A DNA stretch of 64,000 nucleotides from Sycon ciliatum (lineage: Eukaryota; Porifera; Calcarea; Leucosolenida; Sycettidae): assembly GCF_964019385.1 (NCBI RefSeq), contig NC_088654.1, positions 24,562,453 through 24,626,452 of the forward strand, read 5' to 3'. The position numbers and the translations under genes were made by a program. This document shows, piece after piece, positions 22,076-55,635 of the stretch; positions within the stretch are counted from its first letter, which is position 1, and the number at the start of each line of letters is the position of its first letter. Under the pieces are notes generated by a model. The model did no database searches, was not told the DNA's origin, and worked only from the letters and a program-made list of their open reading frames with translations.

Positions 22076-23190
22076 TTAGGCACCCAGGTCGCGACCAAGA
22101 CCATCGCAAGGTGTTTTCTCATACACATCATCGTCTTCAGCGGTGTCATGAACTCCTTGTGTGAAAGTGAAGCTTTGACGGTGACGTGACGGGATCCTTG
22201 CAATGTTGACATAATGTGATGCGCTCGTGTTCATCACCTGCGGGTTATCGTACGGGTCATCTTCAATTCCGTTGTCTTGAATCACATCATCTTGACCAGT
22301 CTCACAAGCTCCTTCTGTCGCCGTGGCTGCCTGGGTTTGCCGCGACTGGTGTCCGGGAACATTGATATAGAGTGGCGCACGTTTCTTCGTCACATCTGCC
22401 GTTTGGTTTCTTTTGCTCTCGGCTATCTCCTGGGAAGCTTCATCTTTCGCAACTTCACCACGTCCTTCTGTTGCTGTGGCATCCTGCGCGTTGTTAAATG
22501 TGATCTCTGACACGTCGATATATGATGGAGATCGTTCCCCTGTCACATCTGTGGCTCCATCTGCTTCAGTTCCGGCATGTGTGTCATACACTCCATCACC
22601 TTCAGAAGCTTCCCAGATGTCTGTGACAATGACCGGGTTGAGCAGGCTAGAAGGGGGTCCAAACACATCGATATAGGCAGGCTCAATCCTTTTCTTCACC
22701 TCGCCCATATCCTGCACGTGGTTGGTAGGACCTTCCATCAAGACTAGATAGGCAGGCTCGCTGTTTTCCACCACCTCCGCCACACCGCTGGGTTGGGTTG
22801 AAGGACCATCAAACGCGTCTAAGTAAAGTGGAATACTCTTTGCCATGGGCTCAGCCATATCCCGGGGTAAGGTTGAGGGATTTTCAGTCACCTCTATATA
22901 AGCTGGCACACTCTTCTTAGAACCCTCGACTCTCACTTCACCATATCGTTTGTCCTCGGTTTGTAATGTCTCTTCCTCATCTGCTGGTGCGCTTTTGTCA
23001 ATGATCGCCGTTGCGCTCTGTTTCTTCATGAAGATGAATGAAGTTCCCGGTGAAGCCCAACCACCGCCCCCAGTTTCGGACTTGGCTTTGTTGCGGTATT
23101 TTCGTGCAAAAATGATGATGAAAGAGAGCAGAATAAGAGATGCTAGGATTCCCAAAACCAAGCCTGTGGTGTTGCTAGTTCCTTGTTCAA
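22076..23190 (-). CDS. Gene 1 exon 16, transmembrane helix and cytoplasmic tail
   Basis: A 1115-bp terminal exon entered in phase 1 after acceptor tttcag and ending in TAA at 22076-22078. It opens EQGTSNTTG, then the helix LVLGILASLILLSFIIIFA followed by the stop-transfer RKYRNK. The tail has no catalytic domain I recognise. Tyrosines at YGEV, YIEV (codon 22900), YLDA (22825), YLVL (22750), YIDV (22675), YDTH, YIDV (22522), YINV (22369), YDNP, YVNI (22213) and YEKT match phosphotyrosine docking patterns: YxN (Grb2-type), YDxP (Crk-type) and Yxx[VIL]. Four motifs recur every 25 residues and the later three every 51-52. The surrounding sequence is acidic and rich in Pro, Ser and Thr. Function as an SH2 docking platform is inferred. 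Confidence 0.85.
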
Positions 23191-26100: not shown

Positions 26101-26580
26101 TAACAAACACTGGCGCTTTCCTACACAAGGACACTGTACTCACTTTGAGGCTGCAGGTACGTAGTGGTCATGTTGCTGAAGTCAAGGGTATTCGGACTCG
26201 TCAAGACGTTGCCACTGAAATCCACCCTTGCAATCACGTCAAATGCGTAGTGCTTTCCAGCGGGGAGGTTTCCAATGCGCCCTGTTAACTCTTCGCCTCC
26301 TACATCCTACAGGAGTATGCGATTTCAAAAAGAGAAGGAAAGTGAAGCAAGAGTTAGTCCATGTATTCATCGAATGTCGGATCACAAAGTTTGATCATTT
26401 TGACCATCATTGCAAAATTCAATCACTCGCCAAAAGTTTGCTCCATTGTTTTCAGCCATATTCCTGACCAGGGTTGGCATAAACTCCGTGGTAAAATATA
26501 GTAAAGGTTGAAACCCGCCTACATGCCAACACACACACACATACACACACACACACACACACACATACACAAACAAACAC

Positions 26581-26652
<72 letters not shown>

Positions 26653-29600
26653 ATTTTCATTAGCCCCCGTCCCTCACACAAACAAGTCAACAAAGCGGCA
26701 TCTTTGGATCGAGGGGTGCTGGTTTCGAAACAACTGGTTTGAAGCTCAAAGTAGAGCTGCTGTTAGCTCAAAGTAGAGCTGCTGTTAGTTCAAAGTAACG
26801 TCAGAGCTGCTATTAGCTCAAGGTAGAGCTGCGGTTAGCTCAAAGTAGAGCTGCTGTTAGCTCAAAGTAGAGCTGCTTTTAGCTCAAAGTAGAGCTGCGG
26901 TTAGCTCAAAGTAGAGCTGCGGTTAACTCAAAGTAGAGCTGCTGTTAGCTCAAAGTAGAGCTGCTGTTAGCTCAAAGTAGAGCTGCTGTTAGCTCAAAGT
27001 AGAGCTGCTGTTAGCTCAAAGTAGAGCTGCTGTTAGCTCAAAGTAGAGCTGCTGTTAGCTCAAAGTAGAGCTGCTTTTAGCTCAAAGTAGAGCTGCTGTT
27101 AGCTCAAAGTAGGGCTGCTGTTAACTCAAAGTAGAGCTGCTGTTAGCTCAAAGTAGAGCTGCTGTTAGCTCAAAGTAGAGCTGCAATGCTAAATGGATGT
27201 AATATAGCTCAAGACAGAGCTGCAGCAAATAGCTAGATGACACCAGTTGTGAGAGTGGACCCGATCAGTGGGTACGATAATCATAATGATTGTGTGAATA
27301 AGTTGGATAGGGAGGGATGGTGGGAAAAGCAACACTGCGGAAGCACGATCTGCTGTCTGGAGGAACACAACAGGGCAAGCAGGATTTGTTTTCTTTTCAG
27401 TAAAACAAGCTGGGTGCCATTTGTGATTACGCAGCAAAGCAAAGTGCATGGCGTCAGTCTTGAAGGCAGCACAGAGTAATGCAGCGCGGTGTATGCGCTA
27501 GTTCGGATTGTTGCTAATGAGTACTACCACAGCTAGTACCCCATTATACAACACGGCACACTCAATCTCGTTCACATCTACAGATGCAAACAATATGTTA
27601 GTCCTTACCTGACTGATATTCAGCAGGGTAGCATTCAACTCAACACTGCGATGACGACGATGCTGCTGCTGTTGCTCTTCCACATAATCTTCCTCATAGA
27701 ACGCAAACATTCTGTAGCTGCTTGGATTGCCTCCTGTTAAGCTGCGTTTCCAAGTCAGCTCGGCTGTGCTGTGATCAATGAATCTGGTTTCGATCTGCCT
27801 TGGCTGGCCAGGATCTACAAGAAGAGAACAGAGCCATATTGGACTGTGTTGTGGATATGTGAAGAAGAGGTTGGTGCGATTTCGGTGATACTCGGGGAAA
27901 TGTGTGTTTCTCCCTAAGCGGGAGCTCGCGCTTTTCCTACCGACTTGAATTCTCACTGTTGTGGATAGGATTAGCGGAAACAGCCATAAGTTAACGAGTC
28001 CAAAGCACTCCTGATTACTAGTATAGAGTAGAGCATGTTCTCCCCACCCTTCACTTGGCACTCATAGAAGCTTCCCAAAAGGATTGTCCGCAGCGTATGC
28101 GTCCGATTTCGTAGATAGTCAAAAAAGTTTAGCTATGAAATTAAAAGAAAGGACCAAAGCGTTACATGTTATCTGTAGTTTGTGTCCAACACTAACACTA
28201 ACACTAACACTAAAAATAACATTAACACTAACACTAACACTAACACTAACAGGTATAAGTAAGATGTTGTGTAGTCAGAAGGTGTAACAGCTAGCACAAT
28301 GCTGACTGATGTGATACAGACATTCAACCACCTGATGATAAGCTATGAGTGTGGTTTTGAGAGAGTTAATGTAGCAGCGACTGTGCTGTGCTGATGAGTC
28401 CACTAAAGACGAAGCAGTTCTGTACGCAGATTGAGTGTAACAGCGACTTACACAGTGCAGCTCCTGGTGAGAAGACTGGCTCACTTGCCGGACCCGGACC
28501 AATTCTGGTGCTTGCAACTAGAACAAACGCACAGGGTGTCCGTTCTACTATTGCATGAATCAATGCATTGCTCTCCTTCCCAGAGACGGTTGCTGTTTTG
28601 TAACCTGTCAGATCGCTCATGGAAGTATTCAGCTGCGCCTCCTCTGTTGAGTTAAGTTCACTGTAGAAAATCGTATAGTCAGTAATGATTCCCCTGCTCT
28701 CTGTCAGCGGCGTCCAGGAGACAATGGCAGTCACACTGGTAGTGTTTGTCTCGAACTCAACGCTGACGTTTGTAACAGCATCGGGAGCTGCAAAATTAGA
28801 CAAAACAATATGAACCGCACATAAAACAATAATATTATGTTATTATCAATGTGGTGTCAGACGTTGTGTATTCCTCCACATGAATCTTCCATAATAATTA
28901 TATATTTTTGTCTCAAGGACATTGAAAATGATTTCAAACACCCTTCTGTCTTGTCGCCCTGGCTTGGGTAAATTGTTGGAAATGGACCATTGCCACACCC
29001 ATATGGTTTTGTGTAGAAATACGGAGTCAATGTCTGTCCCTACATAGAAGCACGTATTATCCAAAGGTGTGGGAGTTCTTAAAAAAGCGTATTTCGCACG
29101 TCAACAGTCCTCCAGGTACCGGTGTGTAGCATGCATGACATGCCACAGGTATTGCGAATAGGCGGTACTGTTCAGGGCTGACCATATTCGTTTCTAAATT
29201 TAATTAACAAATATTGCGGCGCAATCCAGTGCAGTGCTGTCTCAAGACTATTGGTAGGGGTGAAACGCATTCAATGGGGTCATGCAGTATCACTGTGCGT
29301 AAAATGCATCAAGTCCGTGCTTGGTATTTGACGGCCGAAGTCGCAACTTCTAAGTGCTTGGTATGCAGCTGTAATGGCATACATGCATTGTGGGTCCTAA
29401 TTCGTCCTAGTTCGCATTATGGTAAAAGGCGCCTGCCTCCTCAACACTGTACTCTTTTGGAACTACAGTGCGTCTCAAGGAAATGGACCGTGCGAGTTGA
29501 TGACCTTTTGGGCGTTCAGTCCAGTGACAGAAGTGTGAACACTGGGCTGTGTACTGGTGCAAATTAGACTCCAACAAATCGGATTTTGTTGAACTGTACT

Positions 29601-32600
29601 GTTTTAAAAATAGTTTAGTAAGACAGTTTTCATTGAGACAAGAAAATTTAATGAAATAAATCCAAAAGAAAGGCCAGTTTTGCATTAAATACACACAATT
29701 AGGGGCAGAGCTGAAATTAAGTCCTGAAAGAGCGAGAGAGAGTTTGCGAGAGAGTACCATTGCAATTTTCTTAGTTTGAAATATAGAATAGTTTTGCCGC
29801 TTACTGAATTCATCTGTTCGTTGTAACACTGGATTGCTGAACGGTCCAGGTGCAGCCTGGTTAACAGCCCGCACAGACATACCGTACACTGTGTTGATGT
29901 TAAGGTTGGGTATGATGCGCGTTGTGACACTAGGAGCCACGTTGTAAACTCGTGTGTTGTTTTCTGGGCCAGAAATCCTGACATCATAGCGTACTAAGAC
30001 ACCGTTGAGTTCGTGGTCTTGAAGCGCTTTCCAGGTCAGTCGTAGAGCAGTGCTATTCACATACGTGGAGCTGATCACTGTAGGTCCAATGCTTGGGGCT
30101 GCAGGTTACACGGGAATATGAGAAGTATGAAGTAAGGAATTCTGGTGGCCACACCCATTCTCGTAGCGCTGCACACCCGAAAAAGCTCCGTTTTTCTGTT
30201 GATATGAATTTGAATAGATGTGAACATTGGGAATAGGGAAGTGGGCAGCCAGAAAAGCACCAACCTCACCAAGACTCAAACTTGGTCCCAGGCTTAAGTC
30301 CTGGTGGGGTTTGGATTTTTCAGTTTTCAGGCGGTTCACTTCCCTGACTGTTCACATGGAATTTGAAGTTCTCCCTGTCTTTTACATTTCTTACACTGTT
30401 GCAGTTAGACAAATCCTTTAATTAAGATTATCTTCTCAGGTAAACTATTCAAAGCTATTATAGATGAGAGAGATCCTGCCAATTCCCGGAACAATGTGAG
30501 CCGAGCCATTCCCCACTCCGTTATCCCCATGTAGGACCAGCTGCCTGCCTCTATCATTCCCCACCCATTTCACCCAAAGAACATCCAAAAGTTCAAGACA
30601 GCAGCTTATCACCATCTCCTCAGAACGAACTGGCACTGGGCCACTCATAGCATACGCGAGTAAGAGGGTACAGTGTCCTACCCTGCTTGGACATAATCTC
30701 TCCTCACAGACAGTCTCCTCTTGAATATAAAGTCTAACAGCGTACTCAACTCATTCTTTTGCTCACTGTACAATCTTTTCATTTTCTTTCTTCTGTTTTC
30801 TTTTTCAACTTAATCCTCCCTACCCGATTTCCCTTTGGTGCGTCCATGGAGCTATGAAGCCGAGACCTCTGGTCGGCTGAGCTTAATGGGCCCCGCCACC
30901 ACACTCCATTATTCACCCCAGTGTCTGGAGATATGTGGCATTTGTGGAGAAAAAATATAGACTCCGCACGGTATCACAGTAGATAAGGGTCGGCCTTGCA
31001 CAATATGTGTTTCGTGTGGGATGCAGAAATGAACTGCTAAAGGAATAGCATTACAGGCAAGTCATCTGCCGGCCTCTATGTCAGTTTACAAGAACCCAAG
31101 GTCCATATCCATGTATGTTCTTACCGGCTTGCTTCGTCCTGAATGACGTAGCATTAGACAAGCGACCTTGACCAACCGTAGTTTCAGCAGCAATGACGAC
31201 CTCATAGGTCGTGTATGGTTTCAACCGTCCAATGTCTCCACTGAGAGCAGGGGCAACGAAAGCCAGTCTCACAGATCCACGGATAGGCGAGATAGCAGTG
31301 ATACTCACTTGGTAGGATCTGATTACTCCATTCCGTTCCAGTAGGGGAATGGCATTCCACCGGAACTTAGCATAGGTGTCCGTGATGTCCGTGACAGTGA
31401 GTCCTGCAGGAGCCTGACTTGGCACTAGAAAGGAAACATACAAGCCTGATAAGAACAAGTCAGAAAGCATGTACGGTGCCAGGAGCAATTTGACACCTTC
31501 GGTGAAAGATCTGTTTGGCTTTGCCAGGTTAATGCTTGGCTATATTGAAGAGAATCTGATCCTTTATTGTATGACCCTGTAGACCTGCTGTGCATGTAGC
31601 ACTGGACCATACGAGACGGCCATGTTGATTCCAATTACACTCCTACCCTACGTGCCGTATCTACATGTGTCGGTCATATGATATCGGCCATGTTGGTTCC
31701 ACTTTACACCTGCCATGATCACGTTCTACACATCTTTTGCCACACAGCAGAGATGTACTCACGCACTTTAAGCAGCACACAGACCACAATGCAACGTGCT
31801 TACCTGCCTGTAGAGTTTTATGATCTTTGACGGTCGCAGTGCCAGCTTCTCCTCTACCATTCAGCACCCAGCCGCTCACTGTGTAGAGAACAAACTCTTG
31901 GAGGTTGTAAATCTCAATTGTACCAGTATCTGTGCAATTCAGTACAGTCGGTGGCAACTGAGAAGGCGGTATCACCTGATTGTCCCCAGTTGCCTTGGCA
32001 GCAGCCTTGACACAGTATCGCGTAACATTCCAGTCTGGCGAATTGGACACGATGTCCGCCTTCACACTGGTTGGCGTTGAGGTCAGTGTGATTGTCGGCG
32101 CATCAGGTACTAGACCGCATTGCGAGACATCCACATCCACATACATGTACACATACATATACAAACTCGGATCATCTATTCGTGCTATGATCCAAGCTTG
32201 CAGCCTAGATCAATCATATCTTCTGAAAATTGTAGTCAAGTTGCTGTCTGATGATCGGTTAAAACCGTGAAACTCAGAGTTACAGCAGAAACGCTGCTTG
32301 GTTCCTCTCAAGTGTGTGCACCTACACATAAATGTAAACCAAAGGGATTTCTTTCCAGCAGTTTCACCTATTTTTAAGAGGTACGTTTCACTGCAAGAAT
32401 TCCTCCTACACCTCCTTCCCGTTACCCCTAACCAAAATACCTCAAAACTGTTATCTTGGCTTGCACATGTGTTACGATCTAGTATGTTGCGACATCGGCG
32501 GTCATGGATTTGCATAATTCTGCCGGGAAAATCAGTTGATATACTCACCAGCTTCAATTGTTTTATCACCTGCTCCACGTTTCGGTGGTCTTTCTTCACA

Positions 32601-35600
32601 TTGATATCCAATAGCTGACACGCTGATCGTATAGTATTTGTTAGGTTGAAGGCCATCCAATCTGAGCGAGAGCTGATCACTTCCAACGCGTTGTTCCTGG
32701 CTGTTGTACTGGACTAGATATTGTGTGATTGGACCGTTGCGACCAAATAAGGGTACTTCATCCCATACTACAGTGAGTGATGTTCTGTTGACATCCGTGA
32801 TGTTCACAGATGCGGGTGGCTCCGATGGGGCTGGTTGAGGCAAGAAATATTTATATAAAGCATGATGCAAACAAGGCATACAAGGGCTAGTAAGTTGCTA
32901 TGAATATTAACAGCTGAAATTGGCTGTCAAAACTTAGCTTCTCAGTTATGTTCAGTTTGTCACTTTAGGGAGTACAGCTTTCCATTACATGTTATTGTTG
33001 TTGTGCTTTTATGTATAGTTGTTCAACCAAACAGGCAATGGTGCCTTCTCACAAGGAGACGACTTAGAAGAGGAGAGGGGCAGAAAGAGAATGGGGAGGG
33101 GAGAAAAAAACAGGCATGGAAGGGAGATAGAATGGAGAGGATAATGTAGTATAGATTAAGAAGCAGGAGGAAGATCCAGATCTTTGGCACAGTACAAAAA
33201 GCGGTTTAGGCAACTGGGAGAATAAGCAGGTCTTGCGAGCGCAATGCATCACGCAATCGTTTCTTCTCTCCAATGGATCGAAGTTCGGCCGAGAGACTGT
33301 TCCACAATACGCTTCCCACAAGCTGGATTGACAAGCCACTGGAAAATTGCTGACTCCTTTACGTTTCACAAACACCTTAGGATTGCGAACTGGGACCCAC
33401 CTTTTCCATTTCTTCACTCCTATCTGCATTGCGCAAAGAGCCCCAAAGCATCACTTGAGGGCTCAAAATGTAAATATTTCGACTTATAGCAATAAGGTGG
33501 AGGAATGGTTGTGAAAGCAATCCCTACGAAATGACATTAAATACATGCGGTGCCCTTGCAACGCTCCCTAAACTGGAATGTTCTGGTAAAGAGCCATTCC
33601 ATTCTCTTACTCACCGAGGGGGGGGGGGGGGGGATGATCTGTATAACAGACTCCCTCGATTTAGGCTAAGGCCGATATAAAATCCAGAAGTACAAATAAA
33701 AAATACAGTGCCTTGCATATTACAATGCATCAAGTTTTCTAATTAGGCACCGGCGGATTATGCTGGCATAATTATTGGCATAATTTGGCATCCTTTAGGA
33801 GGTAGGAACATAACTACATGATTGTACCACAATTCTAGTATGTAAGCTACACAATTGTGTACAATGCACCTGATCAGTGCTGGTGGACTGCATGGTAAAG
33901 GTTTCGGAGTAATCCTTTCCCGCTGGCCAAAGATGCTCGCCACTTTTTCGCAACTTTCCGTTGTTTGGAAGAAATCGCAACTTTCTTCATTTTTCACAAA
34001 CTACTTCGCAACTATTCCGCAAAGGTGTGCAGAGAAGCGCGCTGGAGGAGACCATCGACTGTGCAAGCTATGGTTATTCCTCTAATAATTAAAAAAAATG
34101 GGGTATACAATGTAGTTGATGTTCGGTCATGGTGCAAAGAGAGATGGAGCTACCGGAGACATGAGCTAATTATTCGCAGGGTGAGGGTGACATCGGTTGG
34201 ACGAGTATGACGATTACGAAGACAGTTGAACATGATAATTTTCAAAGGTAACTCAAAATAAATTGGCAATGAAAAAATCTGTTTACGAAAGAAATCAACT
34301 AATGAATAGAAGAAGTCATTTTTTCTCCTTTCCATGTTGATCTCTAGCATGCATGGTCATCTTGGTATGGGGATATTCATGTATTTTGTTGTACTAATGG
34401 CCACCTGCAGGTACGAAAAGGCACAATTTTCCGAACTTTGAGGCTCCATAAGTACAACAAAGTGAATATGTATCCCCGGCAATTCTAATCCCTCCCCTCA
34501 AACACACACACACACGCATGCAGGCACACACACATGCACGAACACTAGTGAGTCATGCTTTTTTAATGTTTACTTTGCTTGCGCGAATTTTCTCTTCCCG
34601 CACTCTACCCTGTCTCCATGTTGCACTTAACGCCCGGCCAGTGTGAAAACACTGGTTCATATTTCATAAGGTATTTAACGTTCAACTCACCTGCAGGTTG
34701 AGTTGTGAGGTTGAACGGTGTTGAATGTGAGCTGTTATCCATAGCAGTGTTGACAGCAAACACGATTAGAGTGTACGTGGAGTCCTCATCCAGGTTGTCG
34801 AGTACGATGGATGTGACGTTGCTGCAGGTTATTGTAGGTGCTGTTGGCAAGTGAGTACCGGATACTGTCGTACGGTTCCACATGCAGCAGTATTGGTCAA
34901 TTGTAAAATGGCCACTGAGTGTCTCAAATATTACAATTATTGTTGTTGCAGTTGATAGGTGATATCTGATGCTTGGAGGTGGTGGCACTGTGAAGAAAAG
35001 AATTGCGGACATGGTCATCTTCTCCAGTGCTCTGGAGGGTTGTGTATGATTCAACTTTGTAAACAGCCGGCTCCCCCCTCCTTATCCATCCCAGCCCCAA
35101 CCGAGCACCGCTCTGAATACTTTGAAGTACATGCAGGGGTATACCTATTTTTTACTACTTATACTCAAAGTATGCACCGTCCAATCAGTGGATTTCAAGA
35201 TGTATGACATTATATCTCTCTCTCCCTCTCTCTCGCTCAATCTCGCTCTGTCTGTCTGTCTCTGCCTCTGTCTCTCCCTCTCTCTCCCTCTATCTCCCTC
35301 CCTCTCCCCCCCCTCTCTCTCTCTCTCTCTCTCCCTCTCTATCTCTCCCTCTCTCTCTTCATACTCTGCATCTGACTGGCATACGCGAGAGTGGCAATTC
35401 CGCCACACTTGCATGCGGGGATGCCGATATGTTCTTCTTCAACTTCACACCAATTTGGGGATTGACTCCTGATGAGTGGCACAAGAAAACGTTTGAATCC
35501 TCTCGGAACTATTGCCTTGTGACTGCGCATGAATACATTCATACTGATGTCCTTTCATTTTCTCATTGCAATGCCTGCACCTATTAGATATCAGAGAATT

Positions 35601-37396: not shown

Positions 37397-37461
<65 letters not shown>

Positions 37462-40400
37462 TATAGAACGCCAAGAAAACACCAATAAAAGAGTAGAGAC
37501 ACAATACACACGCAACTCCAACAGCCATGCAAACGTCCACCCATTTACACGTAAAGTCAAGAGGGATAACAAATAATTATACGAAACGAATGCATACGTG
37601 GACGGGTACACGCACGTTTACATACACGTAGTAGTGTAAGAGAGTAACATAGTGCAGTGGTCAGCAGAATACTAGCACATGCTGAGAGTGCAATAGCAAG
37701 CTTCACCATTGCTCATGGCCATGCAAATGTTCAGCAGCACTCAGTTCCGCAAGCTTCTGAAGATCAGCACACCTGCAACAAATATATAGCACAAGGATAC
37801 GCTTATTAACGTAATGATGCATGGGAGCACACAACTACCAAGTTCTCAACGAATGTGATGCTCAATGAAAATCAATCCACTCAAAGACCTGTGAACAGGT
37901 GACGGTGGGGACAATAATCTATTAGTAATACGAGGAATAAGATCGTTTGTGCACACTCAAGACGCACAGACACACCACCATACATGTAGTGTACACAGTG
38001 TTTCACTGCAACTAAATTGAAATGAGATGATTTGAACAATCTGTAAAGCGTTGCCGTCAGTCAGTCTTCCCCAAGATGGAAATGCAATGATTTGTTGTCA
38101 CGAGGCAGTTTCATTGACACAATGTCATGTTCGTGACATCAAAACGGTTACTTCATGGAATACGAGTATTAGCTTGAAGCTTTTTCTTGTCATTGGCATA
38201 CAAGCAATCCTCCTACTACTACTAGTACACTGGCACTGCGTTTGTGGATCCCATTGTATTTGACATCATACTATAATTTGTAGAGGAAGAGTGTCGTGGA
38301 GTTTCACATAATTTTCACAGGGATAAAAATACATTTCTCATGAAATAATTATAATAATTGATGATAGCTAGACGATCGTATACGATTGATGCAAAGTCCT
38401 TGCAGTCCTTGAGGACTTATACGAAGTGGTTGATTACTTTTAGGGCATTCATTCAAGCAACATCAAACAAACACGATACGCTCCTTGAAAATGGAAACAA
38501 ATTCAAGCATAACGACAGAACAGCAGACCAATCGAAACGAGTAAAAGCTTCCTTACCTCAGTCATCGTCCTGTCATGTAGTTGGACAGCCTTTTGACACG
38601 GTGGTACAGGCAGCTCTTGTCCAGTCAAACAGGGGTATCCTTGTGGCGTCGAACGAAAGAGAGTGTCAGTGTATCTGACTCGTCAGATTAGAACTGTGCT
38701 GAACTTTTCTCTTTCTCCGCTTTCTGCTTTCATCCCTCGCTCTGATGAAACCGTTCAAACGTCTTACTGGCAGCAATGGCCAGCCAAACAGGGGATCCTT
38801 GTGGCGTCGAACGAAAGAGAGTGTCAGTGTACCTGACTCGTCAGATTTGAACTGTGCTGAACTTTTCTCGTTCTGCAATTTCTGCTTTCATCCCGCGCAC
38901 TGATGAAACGTCTTCAGAGAACCACAAGACGCTTTCCAGATTTGTTTTGAACGTCTCCTTATCCTCCTTGGTTACCTCTAGACAGATTACTGTCAGCAAC
39001 TGCACAGCAGAACTGGGAGCCATGGCTAAAGTGGAGAAAGGAATGCGCTGCCACGAGGCAAGCAAAACTGAAAATGTGTTTGTTCTCTTTCGGGCACAAC
39101 ACACAGGACGGCGTGACTGGATAAACTGGACTCCTGGACTGTGAATAGGGGACTTGTAGAAAAAGTGTACTCCTTATAGGGGATTGCGCGGCAGGATGAA
39201 GCTGATCAAAACTGAGTGGACTCCTGGACTCTGTATAGTGGATTTTGGACCAATGGACTCTATATAGGGTGCTGGACATCATATAGTGCATGGACTCTAT
39301 ACTGAGTGCTACATATATTTTACTTCACCAGAATTACAGGCAGTAGAATGCCTTCTCACTAGACTCGGGTATGATCATGTGCCAATGGTGGATGATGCAA
39401 AGTCATATTGATATTATTTTGGCAGAACTTACGCAGACATGGAGGTATGCTAGGTGCTGTCCAGCTACCACCGGCTTGGCATGTGATAGTTGGAGTTGTT
39501 CCAGAAGGATTGACGGCATATCCAGCAGAACAGCTTATTCTCTTGGTGCTGCCCTCGGTTGTAGCACCAGCCGCTGGATATATACCTCCAGTTGGATTTG
39601 TGGGTACTCCACAGTCTCCTAACAAAGCAGGTGATAATTATTGTAATGGAAAAATCAGAAAGATTGTGAGCAGCCTTTGTCGTTTGACTTGTTCATGAAT
39701 TAGTCCAATCTCCACACATGCGGTCACGGGTAGCTCTTCCCCAAAGGTGCCATAATATTTCGCAACTTATATTTTTCGCAACCTTGCCAAAACAAGTGCA
39801 AGTTGCTGCAATCGCACCCATATTTCCAGAAAAAGCTCAACGGTTGCTGACATCGCTACATGCAATGATGCCCAAAACCACCAAAACAGAGCCAGAATAG
39901 CAGAAGTGCATCCGATCGACAGCCAACTCTCTACTCATTCGTGCTGTAAACCATAACTTTACACGGTGCAAATAGCCGGTTACATGTATCCTCCTTTATG
40001 TCATTGCCCGCAAAAAGGAATGCACATAACAAAACTACCGTTGAACTGTACTAGTAATGTTTTTTCTGAAACGAAATGAGTCTGAAGGCAGGCGAGAAAT
40101 GGACGACTAAGCATTTGTCCGACATGTAGTTGGCGACTTGACCATTTTTGAACCATCCCATGGGACTAGGTTGCGGAAATGTTGCGAAGTAGTTCGCGGA
40201 AAGTTGCGATTTCTTTCCAAACAACCAGAAGTTTCGAAACATATGGCGAGCATCTTTGGGGACGGGCTAGTCTCGGGCCGATCACTTTCACCGCACCAGC
40301 AACACGTCTACGAGTTATTATTTATACTGGCATTAACCTCCTCGGAAACAGAAATGGTACATGTAAAACACTACAAAGAGAGAACACACGTCAAGTACTT

Positions 40401-43400: not shown

Positions 43401-46400
43401 AGAATATTATAAAAATAGTTTTGAATGACAAAGTCCATTGAGTTTTACGTTTTTCATTCTCACTTGGATTCTATACTGTTCACTAGCAATTAATGATTTC
43501 AAGTATTTTTACATACTGCACACATTATGGTTGTGGTTATGGCATTGGTGGGCTTTGGATGAGAAATGTGCAGGTATGTGTGGTCAAAAAGATGAAGGAA
43601 TAGGAGACCTGGCAGCTGAGGACCCTTGCTATTCCTCTGTTTTACCTAGGTCATCACTACTGTTACTGGAGCTGACAGAAACTTATTTGCAATAAAAGAA
43701 CAGAAAAACACTAATTGTATTTTAAGGGATGTTTTTACCAGTTAGAAATACATGCATGGTGACCTAGGTCAAACGAAAGCATAGCGAGGCCCCTCAGCTG
43801 CCAGCACTCTCTCTCTCTCTCTCTCTCTCTTTGCAAATGTGTAGTGGGCACCAAAACACGAATTTTAACCCTTTGTGCACGGACTGTACAACTTTGATGC
43901 CCTGGGATCGAAACCATTAGCCAAATGGAAAGCTTTAACTTTTTGACATCTTAAAAGGTGCTAGTACGTCCTCGGTGCGCACTCCAAAAGCCTTCCAACT
44001 TGGAAGGTTCTAAGTTATCTGATAACATACTGCTGTTGGAGTGCGCATGCAAAACGTTCTAGAGCTCATAGTCAGTTAGTTGTAGAACGTCAGTACCGTT
44101 GGTCAGTGTCGTACAGTGTTATCGCATGAGCTGATTGTTTCGTTACTGGTGGTGTTAGTGGACATTATAACATAACTTGTACTTCCTTGGTCCTTTTCTC
44201 TACTATCAACTCTCATTTAAATCAAGAATATCTTACGTAGACATGGTGGCACACCAGGCATTGTCCAAGTACCATCGGCTTGGCATGTGATAGTTTGTGT
44301 TGTTGCAGAAGGATTGACAGCATAGTCAGAAGAACAAGTTATTGTCCTGGTACTGCCGACGGTTGTAGAACCATCCATTGGATATGTACCCCAAGTTGGA
44401 TTCGTGGGTGTCCTACAGTCTCCTAACAATACAGTTCAAAAAGCAATGGAATATTCTAAATTGTTTTGGATGACAAAAGACATTGAGTGTTACGTTTTTC
44501 ATTCTCACTTGGATTCTATACTGTTCACTAGCAATTAATGATTTCAAGTATTTTGACATACTGCACATAATATGGTTATGGTATTGCTGGGGCCGCATGA
44601 GAAACGTACATGTATGTGTGGTATAAAAAGGAAGGATTAGGAGACCTGGAAGCTGAGGACCCTTGCTATTCCTCTGTTTTACCGAGGTCATCATTACTGT
44701 TACTCGACCTGATAGAAACATATTTGCAATACAAGAACAGAAAAACATTAATTGTATTTAATTATTGAAAGGATTGGGAGAACTTCAAATTCAAATGATC
44801 ATTTGGGGAAGTGAACTGCCTGAAAAGCGAAACAATCGCCAGACCCACCAGGTTGTCATGTCAGGATGTCGCTTGTCATGAGCAATGCTCTAACCAGTGG
44901 TTAGAGCATTACTCATGACAAGCGGGGTCCCGGGTTCGAGTCCTGGTGGGTCTAGCGATTTTTTTCTCTTTTCAGGCAGTTCACTTCCACAAATGATCCT
45001 TTGTATTTAATTGAGATGTTTTTACCAGTTAGAAATACATGCATGGTGACCTAGGTCAAATGAAAGCATAGCGAGGCCCCTGAGCTGGCAGCACTACAAT
45101 GAAGATGATACTGAGTAAATAAGATGGGACCTGTCACTGAAACCTTCTCTGTGTTATCTTGTAGTCTTTCGAATACTTATTGATAAAATTGATTTGAACG
45201 CTATAGCACGCTGCGAAACACCATTGGCCAGGGCCGCTCATCAGAGGGATTTTGATATTTACCACCGGCCAAAGGTGTACTTCGAAGTATGTGAGTAATG
45301 AGCAACTTGCTTTACTTACTGCGTTCATATCTTTTTGTCTCCACGAACAGTAAGTGTTCCTGGCATTCTGCGAATTTGGCCAATCTGCAGAGTGCGCTGC
45401 GCTCCAGATTGAATACAAACCGTTCCCGTTATTTTACCTAGTATTGACCTGAACCGGCTTGGCGATCGAACTGCATAAGGAATTTGATTCTTCAGTATTA
45501 TGACTCGAGACTGCACACTGTGCTCCAGATGTTCTGCAAAGTCAACTAAAGGCTGGAGGAGAGAGGAGTGACCTGCATCATATACGGTGCAGTGCACAGA
45601 TATCGTGCTATTTCATATGATTGAGTTGCATGTTGACTGTAAATGAATGACTATGATGTACTCACTAGTTGAGGGAATGAGAAAGGGAAAAGTCTGAAGA
45701 GAACAATATCTGTCACCACCAGGACTCGAACAGGGACCTTCGCTTGAGGCCAGCGATGTTGTAGCCATTGAGCTCGCCATGTGTTAACACGAAATCCAGC
45801 GATTTCGAAACACTTAGAAACTGAAGACACTGCGACACTGACTAATCTAGCTGGCTGATGCCGCTGCATGAAGCTTCTGTCACGCTGTAAAACGAGCGCC
45901 GACGGCTGCATGAGGCTTCTGTCACTCTGTAAAACGAGCGCCGAGCATCATCCCTTATAGGTGAACTTGTTTTAATTGGGCGCATCGTATTTGGTGTCCG
46001 CTTCGATGTTTGGGCTGCAGGATCGGTATTATAGAGACCTATTAGTACATTGAGAATCATTACAGCAACGAATAACTTACGCAGACATGGTGGCGTGTTA
46101 AGTGTTGTCCAGTTACCATCGGCTTGGCATGTGATATTTGGAGTTGATCCAGGAGGATTCACAACAAATCCAGCAGCACAGCTTATTGTCGCAGTACTGC
46201 TGTTGGTTGTAGGATCGGTCTGATATGTCCCTCCATTCGGATTTGTCGGTGCCCCGCAGTCTCCTAACAATCCAGTAGAGCAGTGCAATTGATTTAGCAC
46301 TACAGATTGTTGTAACACCACCAATGTGCAATTTCTATAATTATGGTATAAGAGACGGTACGTATGCAAACGGTCTAGGTTCTAACCCCCATGATTCGTG

Positions 46401-47996
46401 AATGGTGCTTTAATTAACTGCGCACAAGCACTAGTGTTGGCTGGGTTTACCATTATAATAAAATGATCTTCTTTGAAAGCAACTGCAAACATGGGCAAAC
46501 TCAGGGACGTTTTCAGGACTGAGGAGGCCTCTAGAAATTCATCCAAGTATATAGACGACAGGACAGGGTCAGGTGGTAAAACGTTTTCTAAAAACGACAG
46601 TGCAATGCTGAACCGCCTTCGATATACATACACTACAGCGCAATACAGTACACATGTACATGTATCTGCATTGGCCATTAACCGGTACAATGAACAAATT
46701 TGAGCAGTAGAATTCAAACGTAATAATTATATAATAATGTAATAACACCTATAGTGAATAAGACCACACAACCCCGACTATATCCCCAGTCTCCTGATGA
46801 TTGCTTCTCAGCATGAAACTCGTGAGTAGAGACATTTAATCACGTTGTTGTTCCACCGGATTTTCGTGTGTAATAATGTAATACATGTTGGCTTCCTGGC
46901 TGTTGTCCAATTTCCATTGGATACACATGTAAAATGTGGACGTGAGCAGAGTAGATTTTGTGCGTAGCCAACGGAGCAGTTTTCTGCTACCTGTGCTGAC
47001 CAATGGATCAGTCAATACCTGTGGTGCTATCTGAAGTTATTTGAGGTTATGTCTACAGCATAGGGTAGGTATTTGAGGTTATATTAAGGTTGTGGAGTTA
47101 TGGATACCTGAATGCTAGTAATAAATTTCTTTAGTTTAGTCGGGATTTCGCAACCGACACGTTAGGTGTTCTTGCAGGGTGTCGAAACTGAGCATCTACC
47201 ATACCACCACGTTAATCCATGAGAGGAAGTGCCCTACACAGGAACCGGTTTGGAGCTCTGCCTAGTCGAGAATGATCAGATACGGACAGAAAAAGTGACC
47301 ATGGCGAGAATTTCCTGATTGCCTGGAGTGCTCAACACCACGAGGATGGAGCAAAGGTGCGACCTATGCCTAGTAGAAAAGATGAAGATCATCCGCGTTG
47401 ACGCAGTCACGCTCCTAAACAAAAAAATCAGAATAAGTATCAATATGTCTTCACCAGAATAAGTTATAGCTCTCGCGCTATACTGGTGTGACTTAGTTAC
47501 ATGCCTGCCGTCACCAGTACCAGCCTCCCGCCTGGAGATAAGTTTGTAGCCAGATGATGAACAGATGATCAGTTGTCTGAGGATTGCATTAGCTTTGCTA
47601 TGTGCATGAAACGCAGCGTTACAACAATGACCTAGCAGGTTTTATTGTCTTATTCGTTGGGAATAGACTGCACACATAGCCAGTGCCTTGAGAAGAGACT
47701 TGTTTAGTTTTGGGAACGATGTGTACGACAACTGGGGAGTTGTGAAACAATGCATTATCTGTCATGTGTCGCTTTGGGTAGTTCGAAGCTACAATGCCAT
47801 GCAGCCACTGGTGGATTGAGTCTTGGACAGGCCCTCCCAGCAGGAATCGAGGCTACAAATTTAATCAAACATCCAACTCTCAATATACCATACCTTCGCT
47901 TAGTGATGCCACACAGCTGAGGACCAGTATGATTCGGATGCAATGTAAGCGCATGGCAGACGTGTTCCAAACAATCTTGCCTCTTTCACCTTCCAT
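22076..47996 (-). CDS. Gene 1: CCP x4 - FN3 x9 - TM - polytyrosine-tail receptor (spliced)
   Basis: I assembled this gene by hand from exons 47996-47894, 46263-46081, 44422-44237, 43375-43190, 39618-39433, 36622-36374, 36046-35756, 34987-34691, 32830-32549, 32109-31804, 31424-31125, 30098-29805, 28787-28452, 27814-27609, 26306-26144 and 23190-22076. All junctions are AG/GT and the phases agree throughout. The sum is 4683 bp, so about 1560 residues. Order: signal peptide, four CCP domains (~35-281), nine FN3-like domains (~282-1189), a transmembrane helix, then a ~345-residue tail with no recognisable kinase or phosphatase but 11 tyrosine motifs. CCP and FN3 modules usually bind proteins or glycans outside the cell. 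The tail suggests SH2-protein docking after phosphorylation. I infer a cell-surface recognition or adhesion receptor; the ligand is unknown. The paralogue lies downstream on the same strand. Exon calls are strong; the exact start and any alternative splicing are not proven. Confidence 0.85.
24003..24047 (+). ncRNA. Hammerhead ribozyme-like motif, subfamily 1, copy 1
   Basis: Stem I gtctc/gagac, core atgatga (consensus ctgatga, first base changed), a weak stem II, gaaa, 3-bp stem III ctc-gt-gag, then ta as the U16-H17 cleavage position. It is antisense in gene 1's last intron. The core change probably makes it inactive. Confidence 0.5.
24441..25614. repeat. 15-bp minisatellite, ctacactcaacctgc, ~78 copies
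   Basis: Nearly perfect head-to-tail array in gene 1's last intron. One single-base insertion near 24790 and one T-to-C variant near 24496 are almost the only differences. Because 15 is divisible by 3, every frame is open; these are not genes. Confidence 0.97.
26144..26306 (-). CDS. Gene 1 exon 15, FN3 domain 9, second half and juxtamembrane stalk
   Basis: A 163-bp exon, phase 0 in and phase 1 out. LTGRIGNLPAGKHYAFDVIA supplies the E-F strands missing from the previous exon, and SPNTLDFSNMTTTYLQPQ forms the stalk. The acceptor has a tandem tag (tgtaggatgtag); I used the upstream one because it keeps phase. An alternative 6-bp shorter exon is possible. Confidence 0.7.
26528..26650. repeat. 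CA microsatellite
   Basis: About 120 bp of interrupted (CA)n in the gene 1 intron before the split FN3 exon. Confidence 0.95.
26742..27184. repeat. 22-bp minisatellite, agctcaaagtagagctgctgtt
   Basis: About 20 copies in the gene 1 intron. Each unit contains the inverted repeat agctc/gagct. A few variant units (ctgcgg, ctgctttt) are interspersed. Confidence 0.93.
27609..27814 (-). CDS. Gene 1 exon 14, FN3 domain 9, first half
   Basis: A 206-bp exon, phase 1 in and phase 0 out, the only split FN3 domain. DPGQPRQIETRF, AELTWKRSLTGG and YRMFAFYEED give the first strands. A Gln/His/Arg-rich loop (EEQQQQHRRHRS) follows. Confidence 0.75.
28189..28251. repeat. TAACAC hexamer array
   Basis: About ten units of (ACACTA)n, with a short interruption taaaaataacat. 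Not the standard animal telomere repeat. Confidence 0.85.
28386..28429 (+). ncRNA. Hammerhead ribozyme-like motif, subfamily 2, copy 1
   Basis: Stem I ctgtg/cgcag (5 pairs, one G-U), ctgatga, stem II gtc...gac (3 pairs), gaag (consensus gaaa), stem III cag-tt-ctg, then ta. It is antisense in the gene 1 intron, ~20 bp from the exon 13 donor. The core A15.1 to G change likely weakens it. Confidence 0.55.
28452..28787 (-). CDS. Gene 1 exon 13, FN3 domain 8
   Basis: A 336-bp phase 1-1 exon. Strong FN3 pattern: APDAVTNVSVEFE, IVSWTPLTES, ITDYTIFYSE, then AFVLVASTRIGPG. The donor (gtaagt) sits about 20 bp from an antisense hammerhead-like motif in the intron. Confidence 0.85.
29805..30098 (-). CDS. 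Gene 1 exon 12, FN3 domain 7
   Basis: A 294-bp phase 1-1 exon. Strong FN3 pattern: APSIGPTVISS, LRLTWKALQ, VLVRYDVRI, LNINTVYGMSVRAVNQ. Confidence 0.88.
30268..30352 (+). repeat. Degenerate tRNA-derived SINE
   Basis: The B-box region (aggcttaagtcctggtgggg) and the tail ttttcaggcggttcacttcc match the SINE pair at 44795-45003. The head is decayed. Confidence 0.45.
31125..31424 (-). CDS. Gene 1 exon 11, FN3 domain 6
   Basis: A 300-bp phase 1-1 exon. Strong FN3 pattern: SQAPAGLTVTDITD, AKFRWNAIP, IRSYQVSI, LKPYTTYEVVIAAET. Confidence 0.88.
31804..32109 (-). CDS. Gene 1 exon 10, FN3-like domain 5
   Basis: A 306-bp phase 1-1 exon. VPDAPTITLTSTPTS opens the domain, with RYCVKA in the middle strand and LQEFVLYTVSGWVLNGRGE near the end. 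It is more divergent than its neighbours, and two cysteines may pair. Confidence 0.75.
32549..32830 (-). CDS. Gene 1 exon 9, FN3 domain 4
   Basis: A 282-bp phase 1-1 exon. Strong FN3 pattern: PSEPPASVNITD, LTVVWDEVP, ITQYLVQY, LDGLQPNKYYTISVSA. Confidence 0.88.
33600..34560. other. Gene 1 intron between FN3 domains 3 and 4, repeat relics
   Basis: The whole intron is 32831-34690. It includes a poly-G run at ~33617-33634 and at ~33895-34040 a diverged relative of the 39724-40290 MITE (ttgcgaa-rich motifs). No exon was recognised. Confidence 0.45.
34691..34987 (-). CDS. Gene 1 exon 8, FN3-like domain 3
   Basis: A 297-bp phase 1-1 exon with a degenerate FN3 pattern: VPPPPSIRY, a CC pair (IDQYCCMWN), and LDNLDEDSTYTLIVFAVN. 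It is paralogous to gene 2 exon 928-1227, which keeps the CC pair and the YNVIAFAYNT F-strand. Confidence 0.75.
35213..35363. repeat. CT-rich microsatellite
   Basis: About 150 bp of (CT)n with CCC and TGT interruptions, in the gene 1 intron between FN3 domains 2 and 3. Confidence 0.92.
35640..35682 (+). ncRNA. Hammerhead ribozyme-like motif, subfamily 1, copy 2
   Basis: Core ctgatga, gaaa, stem III ctc-gt-gag and ta are intact. Stem I gtctg/gagac has four pairs and a G-G mismatch next to the core, and stem II is weak. It lies antisense in the intron between gene 1 FN3 domains 2 and 3. Confidence 0.5.
35756..36046 (-). CDS. Gene 1 exon 7, FN3 domain 2
   Basis: A 291-bp phase 1-1 exon. Typical FN3 landmarks: APGNVT at the start, INLSWTAVDP (B-strand Trp), then LTFGTTYTVSVTAEST (F-strand Tyr). 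No counterpart was found in gene 2, where a Ty3 element and a MITE occupy the equivalent intron. Confidence 0.85.
36374..36622 (-). CDS. Gene 1 exon 6, FN3-like domain 1
   Basis: A 249-bp phase 1-1 exon. FN3-like pattern: YEPITTEFCV, then IPGLSPYTVYSVFAYVKT and a final TAAVTIRT. It is short (83 residues) and has a cysteine pair (EFCV, VHC). The exon at 7922-8173 in gene 2 is a clear paralogue. Confidence 0.75.
36744..39318. mobile_element. Probable long-inverted-repeat DNA element in gene 1 intron
   Basis: 36744-36839 and 39225-39318 are inverted copies sharing ctatatgatgtcca, ctatatagagtccattggtc and caaaatccac. The 2.4 kb interior has extra copies of the gtccattggtccaaaatc block at ~36925-36945, a CA microsatellite (37398-37457) and a direct repeat (38628-38754 and 38787-38910, ccttgtggcgtcgaacgaaa). 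No transposase was recognised. Confidence 0.55.
39433..39618 (-). CDS. Gene 1 exon 5, CCP/sushi domain 4
   Basis: A 186-bp phase 1-1 exon encoding DCGVPTNPTGG, RISCSAGYAV, TITCQAGGSW and SIPPC. All four CCP cysteines and the Trp are present. It is the last CCP before the FN3 stack; a 2.8 kb intron holding a foldback element follows. Confidence 0.88.
39724..40290. mobile_element. MITE-like element, uninterrupted copy
   Basis: Same family as 1349-2325, in the intron after gene 1 CCP domain 3. Ends gggtagctcttccccaaa and tttggggacgggctag are imperfect inverted repeats. The interior has several aaagttgcga motifs. A third, partial relative is at ~33895-34040. Confidence 0.65.
40457..42560 (-). 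pseudogene. APE-type LINE ORF2 relic (reverse transcriptase), 5'-truncated, frameshifted
   Basis: Reading on the minus strand, the frame from ~42555 carries AAGPDGVTHELLK, YRPISLLSTISK and QSGFRRGDSTAWQ. It shifts near 41840 into the frame with FFDLSKAFDTVWH, GVPQGSILGPLLFLMYVND, YADDTTLL and HKHLGVTLDSKLDW. It shifts again near 40900 into the last segment with LAYQLWDSLPQQLKSSNT, ending at ~40699. A 3' tail of (AAT)n lies at 40458-40480. The order and motifs are those of a non-LTR retrotransposon reverse transcriptase. The endonuclease domain is missing. It sits in the intron between CCP domains 3 and 4; its clade was not determined. Confidence 0.85.
42936..43160. mobile_element. MITE copy next to CCP exon 4
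   Basis: Opens gcgcactccaacagcc with a short inverted partner ctgctgttggagtgcgc, and closes aacgtgtacttccttggtcc. Same family as 14135-14330. Confidence 0.6.
43190..43375 (-). CDS. Gene 1 exon 4, CCP/sushi domain 3
   Basis: A 186-bp phase 1-1 exon encoding DCKTPANPTGG, TITCSPDYAV, TIKCQAGGTW and GVPPC. It is the sister of the exon at 44237-44422, with the same donor context (cttacgta on the plus strand) and the same flanking MITE. Confidence 0.88.
43975..44206. mobile_element. MITE copy next to CCP exon 3
   Basis: Duplicate of 42936-43160, copied together with the CCP exon. Confidence 0.6.
44237..44422 (-). CDS. Gene 1 exon 3, CCP/sushi domain 2
   Basis: A 186-bp phase 1-1 exon encoding DCRTPTNPTWG, TITCSSDYAV, TITCQADGTW and GVPPC. 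It is nearly identical to the next exon and lies in a ~1.04 kb tandem duplication with it, so the extra domain was gained recently. Confidence 0.88.
44795..45003. repeat. Head-to-head pair of tRNA-derived SINEs (palindrome)
   Basis: The right unit reads ggttagagcattactcatga then cgggttcgagtcctgg (B box) and tail tttcaggcagttcacttcc. The left unit is its inverted copy minus the B-box segment. Outer ends gatcatttg and caaatgatc also mirror each other. Confidence 0.7.
45697..45782 (-). repeat. tRNA-derived SINE
   Basis: Minus strand: gagctcaatggctacaacat (A-box region) and ctgttcgagtcctggtggtg (B box), then a tail ttctcttcagacttttccc shared with 48103-48205. Confidence 0.55.
46081..46263 (-). 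CDS. Gene 1 exon 2, CCP/sushi domain 1
   Basis: A 183-bp phase 1-1 exon encoding DCGAPTNPNGG, then TISCAAGF, NITCQADGNW and TPPC. The four cysteines, the Gly-rich start and the late Trp are the CCP signature. It has a clean acceptor (ttgttag) and donor (gtaagt). CCP modules of about 60 residues mediate extracellular protein binding. Confidence 0.88.
46789..46833 (+). ncRNA. Hammerhead ribozyme-like motif, subfamily 1, copy 3
   Basis: The best copy. Stem I gtctc/gagac (5 pairs), ctgatga, stem II tgct-tctc-agca (4 pairs above a T-T mismatch), gaaa, stem III ctc-gt-gag, cleavage after ta. Type I topology with a minimal stem III is known from Penelope-like elements and animal retrozymes. It lies antisense in gene 1 intron 1. 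Confidence 0.6.
47894..47996 (-). CDS. Gene 1 exon 1, signal peptide
   Basis: The ATG at 47996 has G at -3 and +4. The exon encodes 34 residues beginning MEGERGK and ending LVLSCVASLSE, then stops in phase 1 at donor gtatgg. The hydrophobic run IRIILVLSCVASL fits a signal peptide; the second Met (residue 15) would give a more typical one. I chose it because gene 2 has a homologous exon (MEGGKHQ...CAMCAAG) with the same start context, length and phase. It joins the phase-1 acceptor of the first CCP exon, giving a Gly codon. Confidence 0.7.
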
Positions 47997-53788: not shown

Positions 53789-53988
53789 NNNNNNNNNNNN
53801 NNNNNNNNNNNNNNNNNNNNNNNNNNNNNNNNNNNNNNNNNNNNNNNNNNNNNNNNNNNNNNNNNNNNNNNNNNNNNNNNNNNNNNNNNNNNNNNNNNNN
53901 NNNNNNNNNNNNNNNNNNNNNNNNNNNNNNNNNNNNNNNNNNNNNNNNNNNNNNNNNNNNNNNNNNNNNNNNNNNNNNNNNNNNNNNN
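53789..53988. other. Assembly gap, 200 N
   Basis: Exactly 200 N, next to a very long TAC array; true size unknown. Confidence 1.

Positions 53989-54005: not shown

Positions 54006-55635
<1,630 letters not shown>

What the first reader, a model, noticed from the sequence alone, without database searches (positions are those of the whole stretch)
22076..47996. A tandemly duplicated CCP-FN3 receptor with a kinase-less polytyrosine tail
The exon model stays in frame from a signal peptide through 4 CCP and 9 FN3 domains, a transmembrane helix and a tail with 11 tyrosine motifs. I know no named family with this exact layout. It could be a cell-recognition or immune-type receptor signalling through SH2 adaptors. 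The module calls are established; the role is inference.
Basis: partly seen in the sequence, partly recalled or inferred. Interest (0 to 1): 0.8.

Follow-up and report, generated by a model that had tools for sequence, protein, structure and literature searches.

The report
Clustered tyrosine-tailed CCP-FN3 surface receptors
A non-bilaterian animal, probably a sponge, carries a cluster of genes for cell-surface receptors built from complement-type and fibronectin-type modules with a tyrosine-rich tail and no enzyme, an arrangement resembling known self/non-self recognition gene clusters in other animals; what the receptors actually do is not shown.

Summary
A 16-exon minus-strand model (47954-22076; another ATG at 47996 is in frame) has GT-AG introns, matching phases and no internal stop. 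It gives 1546 aa: signal peptide, 4 CCP, 9 FN3, one TM helix and a kinase-less tail with 12 Tyr, 11 outside the juxtamembrane stretch.

"Tandemly duplicated" also holds, with a correction. A diverged neighbour runs off the window's left end and has its own TM and tail; another lies upstream. About 10 gene-like places carry the family's FN6 or tail, 9 on C13 24.54-25.51 Mb. The near-identical copy just upstream (95% protein identity) meets this one across a 200-N gap as a suffix-prefix overlap, so it is more likely the other haplotype than a duplicate.

No kinase match lies on C13 among the 145 listed. Tail tyrosines sit in YxxV/I/L and Y-x-D/E/N-V contexts beyond chance; motif classes were picked post hoc.

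Best reading: clustered, polymorphic recognition receptors that signal through recruited SH2 proteins. Architecture is well supported; the role is inferred. Functional analogues are Botryllus FcoR and Hydractinia Alr, with different ectodomains. The host is probably a sponge, not proven.

The parts
47894..47954 (-). exon 1: signal peptide MRLHCIRIILVLSCVASLSE (in-frame upstream ATG at 47996); donor phase 1
   Evidence: scan (hydrophobicity and donor only, no signal-peptide program); 121 bp including flanks identical in the copy upstream
46081..46263 (-). exon 2: CCP1
   Evidence: Pfam Sushi 32.8 bits; splice sites
44237..44422 (-). exon 3: CCP2
   Evidence: Pfam Sushi 30.5 bits
43190..43375 (-). 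exon 4: CCP3, 84% identical to CCP2 (a ~0.85-kb direct repeat, 90% identical, carries both)
   Evidence: Pfam Sushi 28.5 bits; repeat
39433..39618 (-). exon 5: CCP4
   Evidence: Pfam Sushi 32.7 bits
36374..36622 (-). exon 6: FN1 (two-cysteine FN3 subtype)
35756..36046 (-). exon 7: FN2
   Evidence: Pfam fn3 36.6 bits
34691..34987 (-). exon 8: FN3 (two-cysteine subtype)
32549..32830 (-). exon 9: FN4
   Evidence: Pfam fn3 49.4 bits
31804..32109 (-). exon 10: FN5 (two-cysteine subtype)
   Evidence: no fn3 hit; aligned with FN1 and FN3 paralogues; acceptor read from bases
31125..31424 (-). exon 11: FN6; 31 of 300 bases differ from the other copy, against 3.3% in introns of 33.7-28.25 kb
   Evidence: Pfam fn3 39.6 bits
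29805..30098 (-). exon 12: FN7
   Evidence: Pfam fn3 39.0 bits; donor read from bases
28452..28787 (-). exon 13: FN8
   Evidence: Pfam fn3 33.6 bits
27609..27814 (-). exon 14: FN9, first half
   Evidence: by eye; splice sites; paralogues
26144..26306 (-). exon 15: FN9, second half
   Evidence: by eye; splice sites; paralogues
22076..23190 (-). exon 16: stalk, TM helix (GLVLGILASLILLSFIIIF), kinase-less tail with 12 Tyr, stop
   Evidence: no Pfam hit
12189..12300 (-). candidate signal-peptide exon of the neighbouring gene 2
   Evidence: scan only
10522..11310 (-). gene 2: two CCP exons (11310-11131, 10701-10522)
   Evidence: Pfam Sushi 31.9 and 34.4 bits
7926..8174 (-). gene 2: FN1-like exon
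   Evidence: 49% identical to FN1; fn3 19.9 bits, below cut-off
926..1228 (-). gene 2: FN3-like exon; gene 2 continues off the left end to a TM and tail at C13:24537574
   Evidence: no Pfam hit for this ORF
53789..53988 (.). 200-N scaffold gap between this gene and the near-identical copy upstream; an overlapping-haplotype junction is likely

Best explanation
It is a single-pass type I receptor, one of a clustered multigene family. Shown by sequence: four CCP and nine FN3 domains outside, one TM helix, and a roughly 340-residue tail without kinase or phosphatase in which a module of about 25 residues carrying P-x-Y-(I/L)-(D/E/N)-V recurs; paralogues differ in CCP number, FN3 number and tail length. 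Inferred: the CCP and FN3 rod binds a surface or microbial ligand, receptors cluster, a cytoplasmic tyrosine kinase phosphorylates the tail, and SH2 proteins dock on it (Y-x-N sites suit Grb2-type SH2, Y-x-x-V/I/L sites suit Src- or SHP-type SH2; these specificities are recalled). Tail length would set the number of docking sites. The most likely role is self/non-self or microbe recognition, as a polymorphic receptor cluster.
For: Coherent gene model with conserved splice sites in a second copy, dN/dS about 0.42, and diverged neighbours with the same domain types in the same order. Tail of this gene: 7 Y-x-x-V/I/L against 1.8 expected (P 0.001), 5 Y-(A/I/L/V/E)-(D/E/N/T)-(V/I/T) against 0.25 (0 of 5000 shuffles), 4 Y-x-N, one of them juxtamembrane, against 0.47 (P 0.0008). 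Tyr at 1273, 1298, 1323, 1348, then 1399, 1450, 1502: 25-residue spacing and about its double. Short related tails keep AYG(A/T)V, AYET and VYAD(V/I). Cluster of about 10 gene-like places. CCP number varies: 2 in gene 2, 4 here, and 11 full-length CCP exons 85-90% identical to this gene's CCP2 within C13:25214205-25247846. FN6 differs at 31 of 300 bases between the two copies, against 128 of 3913 in the introns of 33.7-28.25 kb (P 1.4e-7) and 27 of 1218 in four other FN3 exons (P 6e-9). Recognition clusters in Botryllus and Hydractinia use tyrosine-motif tails (PMC12065747, passages).
Against: No expression, ligand, phosphorylation or population data. Only 1 ITIM-like match in this tail, not above chance (0.41 expected, P 0.34), and no YxxM. 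Motif classes were chosen after seeing the tail, so the P values are optimistic. In other tails the YxxV/I/L excess is weaker (P 0.04, 0.23 and 0.04 in three short tails that are near-identical to each other, 0.13 in gene 0) and gene 2 has none of the Y-x-D/E/N class. Overall dN is below dS, so no diversifying selection is shown; dS is raised in CCP2 and FN6 (about 0.18) and also in FN9b (0.12) and CCP4 (0.09), which points to gene conversion or deep allelic lineages. CCP2 may simply be mispaired: by sequence it is closer to the third CCP of the other copy (93.5%) than to its second (90.2%). An intron stretch at 29771-29468 is nearly as divergent as FN6 (28 of 300). Y-x-x-hydrophobic can also be an endocytosis signal. 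The upstream near-copy is probably allelic, so part of the apparent expansion may be assembly haplotypes.
Confidence: 0.5

Rival explanations
1. Ordinary cell-adhesion or matrix receptors: the CCP and FN3 rod mediates cell-cell or cell-matrix adhesion in building the body, and the tail tyrosines link adhesion to growth signalling, without any role in self/non-self recognition.
For: By sequence the closest solved FN3 stretches are of LAR-type phosphatases and contactins (E 1.3e-20 for 6tpw). FN3 arrays are the classic adhesion module (recalled).
Against: Adhesion genes of this kind are usually few and conserved (recalled), whereas this family is clustered, with varying CCP and FN3 numbers and a locally raised divergence in FN6.
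Confidence: 0.25
2. Scavenger or phagocytic receptors: the ectodomain binds microbes or debris and the repeated Y-x-x-hydrophobic motifs serve clathrin endocytosis or phagocytosis rather than graded SH2 signalling.
For: Y-x-x-V/I/L is the commonest tail motif class (7 of 12 Tyr) and fits the adaptor sorting signal (recalled). Sponge SRCR pattern-recognition genes mix Sushi and FN3 modules (PMC8242945, passages).
Against: Preference for D/E/N at +2 and for Y-x-N is not required for sorting; one or two copies usually suffice (recalled).
Confidence: 0.15
3. Cytokine or growth-factor receptor that signals through an associated JAK-like kinase.
For: Sushi and FN3 occur in interleukin receptors (recalled); PF09294 Interfer-bind scores 24.9 bits, above its cut-off of 21, though with no stretch passing on its own; interferon-receptor FN3 domains appear among fold matches.
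Against: Those fold matches are tied with many adhesion FN3 domains; I saw no WSxWS and no Box1-like motif in the sequence by eye (not computed).
Confidence: 0.08
4. The near-identical copy upstream is a true tandem duplicate rather than the second haplotype.
For: It lies on the same scaffold with all 16 exons intact; the retroelement stretch 40460-42605 and most of the 15-bp repeat array at 24442-25616 are missing from it.
Against: The homologous block ends exactly at a 200-N gap on one side and starts 2.7 kb after the gap, behind a microsatellite, on the other: a suffix-prefix overlap of 95.4% identity over 31.8 kb of non-overlapping aligned pieces of at least 400 bases. Insertion differences are as common between haplotypes as between duplicates (recalled).
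Confidence: 0.25

Closest known systems
Botryllus fester co-receptors (FcoR) of the fuhc locus
   Same: type I TM, Sushi domain outside, long tail with Y-x-x-I/L/V core motifs, clustered multigene family (PMC12065747, passages)
   Different: Ig domains instead of FN3, a sushi domain rather than four, 520-610 aa, canonical ITIM or hemITAM in some and SH2 domains in many loci (same passages); different phylum if this is a sponge
Hydractinia Alr allorecognition receptors
   Same: candidate allorecognition genes with ITIM/ITAM motifs (PMC12065747, passages)
   Different: immunoglobulin-like ectodomains (recalled), no CCP or FN3 rod
Geodia cydonium putative multiadhesive protein (FN3, SRCR, CCP modules)
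   Same: combines fibronectin and CCP modules in a sponge (title seen in the reference list of PMC10855680; paper not read)
   Different: has SRCR; I know of no tyrosine tail or cluster for it (recalled)
LAR-type receptor tyrosine phosphatases and contactins
   Same: closest solved FN3 sequence matches
   Different: Ig domains; LAR has cytoplasmic phosphatase domains and contactins have a GPI anchor (recalled); no CCP
Receptor tyrosine kinases with FN3 ectodomains
   Same: FN3 arrays and tail tyrosines
   Different: no kinase domain here; none of the 145 listed kinase matches of this genome lies on C13
Sponge aggregation factors
   Same: cited as the sponge allorecognition candidates in PMC12065747 (reference list and introduction passages)
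   Different: secreted Calx-beta and Wreath proteins (recalled; PMC5400394 not held)

Membership tests
Receptor tyrosine kinase | cytoplasmic tyrosine kinase domain | tested here: not met
   tail exon ends in a stop with no Pfam hit; no kinase catalytic-loop motif in ORFs of 30 aa or more of the 264 kb held; 0 of 145 listed PF07714 matches on C13 (142 of 1320 first-look candidates scored)
Receptor tyrosine phosphatase (LAR type) | cytoplasmic phosphatase domain | tested here: not met
   no Pfam phosphatase in the spliced protein; no catalytic motif in ORFs of 30 aa or more of the 264 kb
Receptor tyrosine phosphatase (LAR type) | FN3 array | tested here: met
Botryllus FcoR | Sushi domain in a type I TM protein | tested here: met
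   Sushi; TM and signal peptide by hydrophobicity only
Botryllus FcoR | V-type and C2-type Ig domains | tested here: not met
   no Ig family among the 8 Pfam families of the spliced protein at E 0.5
Botryllus FcoR | tail with Y-x-x-I/L/V motifs | tested here: met
   7 against 1.8 expected
ITIM-bearing inhibitory receptor | (I/L/V/S)-x-Y-x-x-(I/L/V) above chance | tested here: not met
   1 found, 0.41 expected, P 0.34 in this tail
Hydractinia Alr | Ig-like ectodomain | tested here: not met
   feature recalled
Allorecognition receptor (functional class) | polymorphism that segregates with fusion or rejection | not testable with these tools
   one individual; probable two haplotypes differ in 77 alignment columns of 1546
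Geodia multiadhesive protein | SRCR module beside FN3 and CCP | tested here: not met
   no SRCR among the Pfam families of the spliced protein
Cytokine receptor class I/II | cytokine-receptor homology module | tested here: inconclusive
   Interfer-bind 24.9 bits, 0 stretches passing alone

The most novel reading that the evidence does not exclude
This is a histocompatibility or immune receptor complex of a sponge: a roughly 1-Mb polymorphic cluster of CCP-FN3 receptors whose tyrosine-module tails feed SH2 signalling, so that a third animal lineage would have reached kinase-less tyrosine-tail recognition receptors with an unrelated ectodomain.
Probability: 0.2. Interest if true: 0.9.

Novelty: new variant of a known kind. 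Interest (0 to 1): 0.55.

Why it matters
A 2025 review (PMC12065747, passages) states that candidate allorecognition proteins of sponges, cnidarians and ascidians are not conserved with each other, and that cnidarian and ascidian candidates nevertheless carry ITIM/ITAM-type motifs. A sponge-type cluster of tyrosine-tailed surface receptors would give a testable candidate for a sponge receptor side. It also suggests how a docking tail can grow by multiplying one tyrosine module.

Tried and rejected
Relatives in viral contigs for the tail: none (7 pattern stretches, 0 confirmed); genome contigs and metagenome contigs were not searched. Literature searches, all ten: sponge/allorecognition/fibronectin type III/sushi 0 papers; sponge/SRCR/fibronectin/complement control protein/receptor 4 papers, passages of two read; assembly size, 0 papers; sponge/chromosomal pseudomolecules/Porifera 14 listed, abstracts only, the 13 genome notes among them give other sizes; Porifera/sushi domain/fibronectin type III/receptor 2 papers, one seen as listing, the other in passages; calcareous sponge genomes 7 papers, listing only; allorecognition/ITAM/Hydractinia/transmembrane 4 papers, passages of one read; sponge/allorecognition/receptor/gene family/polymorphic 15 papers, passages of two read; sponge/tyrosine-based motifs/fibronectin type III/transmembrane receptor 0; Amphimedon/sushi/FN3/immune receptor 2 papers, passages of both read. 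None of what I saw describes this layout. Mitochondrial COX1 was not found in the assembly, so no mitochondrial barcode. A conversion donor for the FN6 divergence was not found: among 31 sites that differ between the two copies, gene 2 matches one at 14 and the other at 12. A first test of FN6 against hand-picked flanking bins overstated the contrast; one search replaced it with all introns of the aligned stretch. I considered a fifth CCP at 47005-46883: half a domain with no donor visible after it by eye, so probably a decayed exon; it is also in the other copy. I first read the upstream copy as a recent tandem duplicate; one search changed that. The innexin search found nothing, but no control genome rang either, so absence is not shown. 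A search for SRCR genes was asked twice, never answered, and dropped.

Full report
What is there. The window lies at C13:24562453-24626452 of a 538-Mb assembly with intron-bearing animal-type genes. On its minus strand 16 exons form one gene from 47954 (or the in-frame ATG at 47996) to the stop at 22076. Exon ends are GT-AG and phase 1, with a phase 0 intron inside FN9; the CDS is 4641 nt without internal stop. Pfam finds 4 Sushi and 6 fn3 stretches in the spliced product. FN1 and FN3, which Pfam misses or scores below cut-off, are confident FN3 folds by AlphaFold and structure alignment. FN1, FN3 and FN5 share two invariant cysteines. In gene 0 upstream this subtype alternates with the ordinary subtype four times over, so the rod may have grown by duplicating domain pairs (inference).

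The tail. After the TM helix come 12 tyrosines. Four successive modules have Tyr exactly 25 residues apart (1273, 1298, 1323, 1348), later ones 51-52 apart (1399, 1450, 1502). The motif counts exceed composition shuffles for Y-x-x-V/I/L, for Y-(A/I/L/V/E)-(D/E/N/T)-(V/I/T) and for Y-x-N, but not for ITIM; the classes were chosen after looking. Six of the eight family tails in hand were tested (the near-copy and the tail at C13:25351644 were left out, each near-identical to one tested): Y-x-x-V/I/L has P below 0.05 in four, the Y-x-D/E/N-type class in five; three of the six are near-identical to each other, so these are not independent. The five other tails tested have 5 tyrosines each, this one 12. 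In the alignment the P-x-Y-x-x-V module present once or twice in the others recurs here.

The cluster. Tail search: 7 matches from 10 candidates, 6 on C13 and 1 on C12; the gene 2 tail was found only by a local profile. FN6 search: 16 matches from 98 candidates; those at 49% identity or more lie at 8 places on C13 24.54-25.51 Mb and 1 on C12. CCP2 search: 65 matches, 150 of 295 candidates scored; 42 lie on C13 24.57-25.43 Mb by my count. About a third of the 150 scored fn3 matches (51 by my count) lie on C13 24.54-25.51 Mb. If an FN6 exon and the tail next to it on the same strand, 5-31 kb away, are counted as one gene, FN6 and tail evidence gives 9 gene-like places on C13 and 1 on C12; some may be alleles, and the far ones were not read through. 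The 264 kb read in full holds, on the minus strand, gene 0 (13 FN3, tail; no CCP found, but a 5-kb N gap lies 7.5 kb upstream), the near-copy 1b, this gene, and gene 2 (2 CCP, 13 FN3, short tail at 24537574), then plus-strand domains from 24722577 on. Genes 0 and 2 were mapped by domain, not spliced.

Haplotype or duplicate. The near-copy 1b has all 16 exons; the proteins differ in 77 alignment columns of 1546, dN 0.023, dS 0.055. The block that matches ends at window 53788, directly at a 200-N gap, and restarts at 56706, behind the microsatellites that follow the gap; 31.8 kb align at 95.4%. This is how two overlapping haplotype contigs look when set side by side. I take 1 and 1b as probable alleles, about 75%. 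If so, one individual carries two forms that differ at 5% of residues. FN6 is the most divergent stretch between 33.7 and 28.25 kb: 31 of 300 bases against 128 of 3913 in introns (P 1.4e-7) and 27 of 1218 in FN4, FN5, FN7 and FN8 (P 6e-9). Against a purely exonic effect, an intron stretch at 29771-29468 reaches 28 of 300. dS is raised in FN6 and CCP2 (about 0.18), less so in FN9b and CCP4, which favours gene conversion or old allelic lineages over simple positive selection; CCP2 may also be mispaired with CCP3 of the other copy.

Host. Among the 12 best homeodomains fetched (of 117 matches; 150 of 191 candidates scored) none is Hox-like by my recalled consensus; they look NK-, Msx- or Bar-like. 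No innexin match was found, but no control rang. Sushi domains are very abundant (3560 first-look candidates; 150 scored, 150 matches). A sponge fits best (about 75%, judgement); a ctenophore is less likely if the innexin result is true. Not proven.

Function. The step from architecture to signalling is inference. There is no kinase in the protein, no kinase motif in ORFs of 30 aa or more of the 264 kb, and none of 145 listed kinase matches on C13, so phosphorylation would have to come from another protein. The nearest functional parallels are FcoR receptors of the Botryllus fuhc locus, with Sushi, TM and a Y-x-x-I/L/V tail, and Hydractinia Alr (PMC12065747, passages). This family fails their Ig-domain criterion, so it may work like them without being one of them. 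The nearest sponge precedent in domain content is the Geodia FN3-SRCR-CCP protein, seen only as a title in a reference list; in Halichondria, SRCR genes are also associated with Sushi and FN3 domains (PMC8242945, passages).

Verdict. The finding is a real and well-built gene model in a real family, a new variant of the known kind of clustered tyrosine-tailed recognition receptors. The role remains open.

Noticed in passing
window 53789-53988 and 54006-55635: 200-N scaffold gap followed by a (CTA) array of 543 copies and a CTG array at 56556-56701; likely false-duplication junction between two haplotype contigs.
   Followed up: yes
window 13855-19086 and 56706-61942: 5.2-kb block, 98.5% identical, bounded by CTA and TTA microsatellites; fits the overlap of the two haplotype contigs, with small related pieces elsewhere in the 264 kb.
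   Followed up: partly
window 2927-6622 (-): Gypsy-type LTR retroelement pol ORF between two exons of gene 2.
   Followed up: partly
window 40905-42556 (-): Reverse transcriptase in two overlapping frames, in the intron between CCP3 and CCP4; not in the aligned near-copy.
   Followed up: partly
window 46883-47005 (-): Half CCP domain without a visible donor, kept in both copies: probable decayed fifth CCP exon.
   Followed up: partly
window 24442-25616: 78 copies of a 15-bp unit, 99% alike, in the intron before the tail exon; the near-copy lacks most of it.
   Followed up: no
G000:C13:25214205-25247846 (+): 11 full-length CCP exons, 85-90% identical to this gene's CCP2 and 1.5-11.5 kb apart, perhaps one CCP-rich family member.
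   Followed up: no
G000:C5:28.06-29.91 Mb: More than 20 plus-strand kinase ORFs of mostly 332-349 aa with very similar scores, spread over 1.8 Mb.
   Followed up: no
G000:C14:16.5-18.6 Mb: Dozens of weak homeodomain-like matches, many in open frames of about 500-630 aa; possibly a transposase or a gene family.
   Followed up: no
G000:C1:75.533-75.541 Mb (-): FN3 matches beside a kinase match, possibly an FN3 receptor kinase.
   Followed up: no
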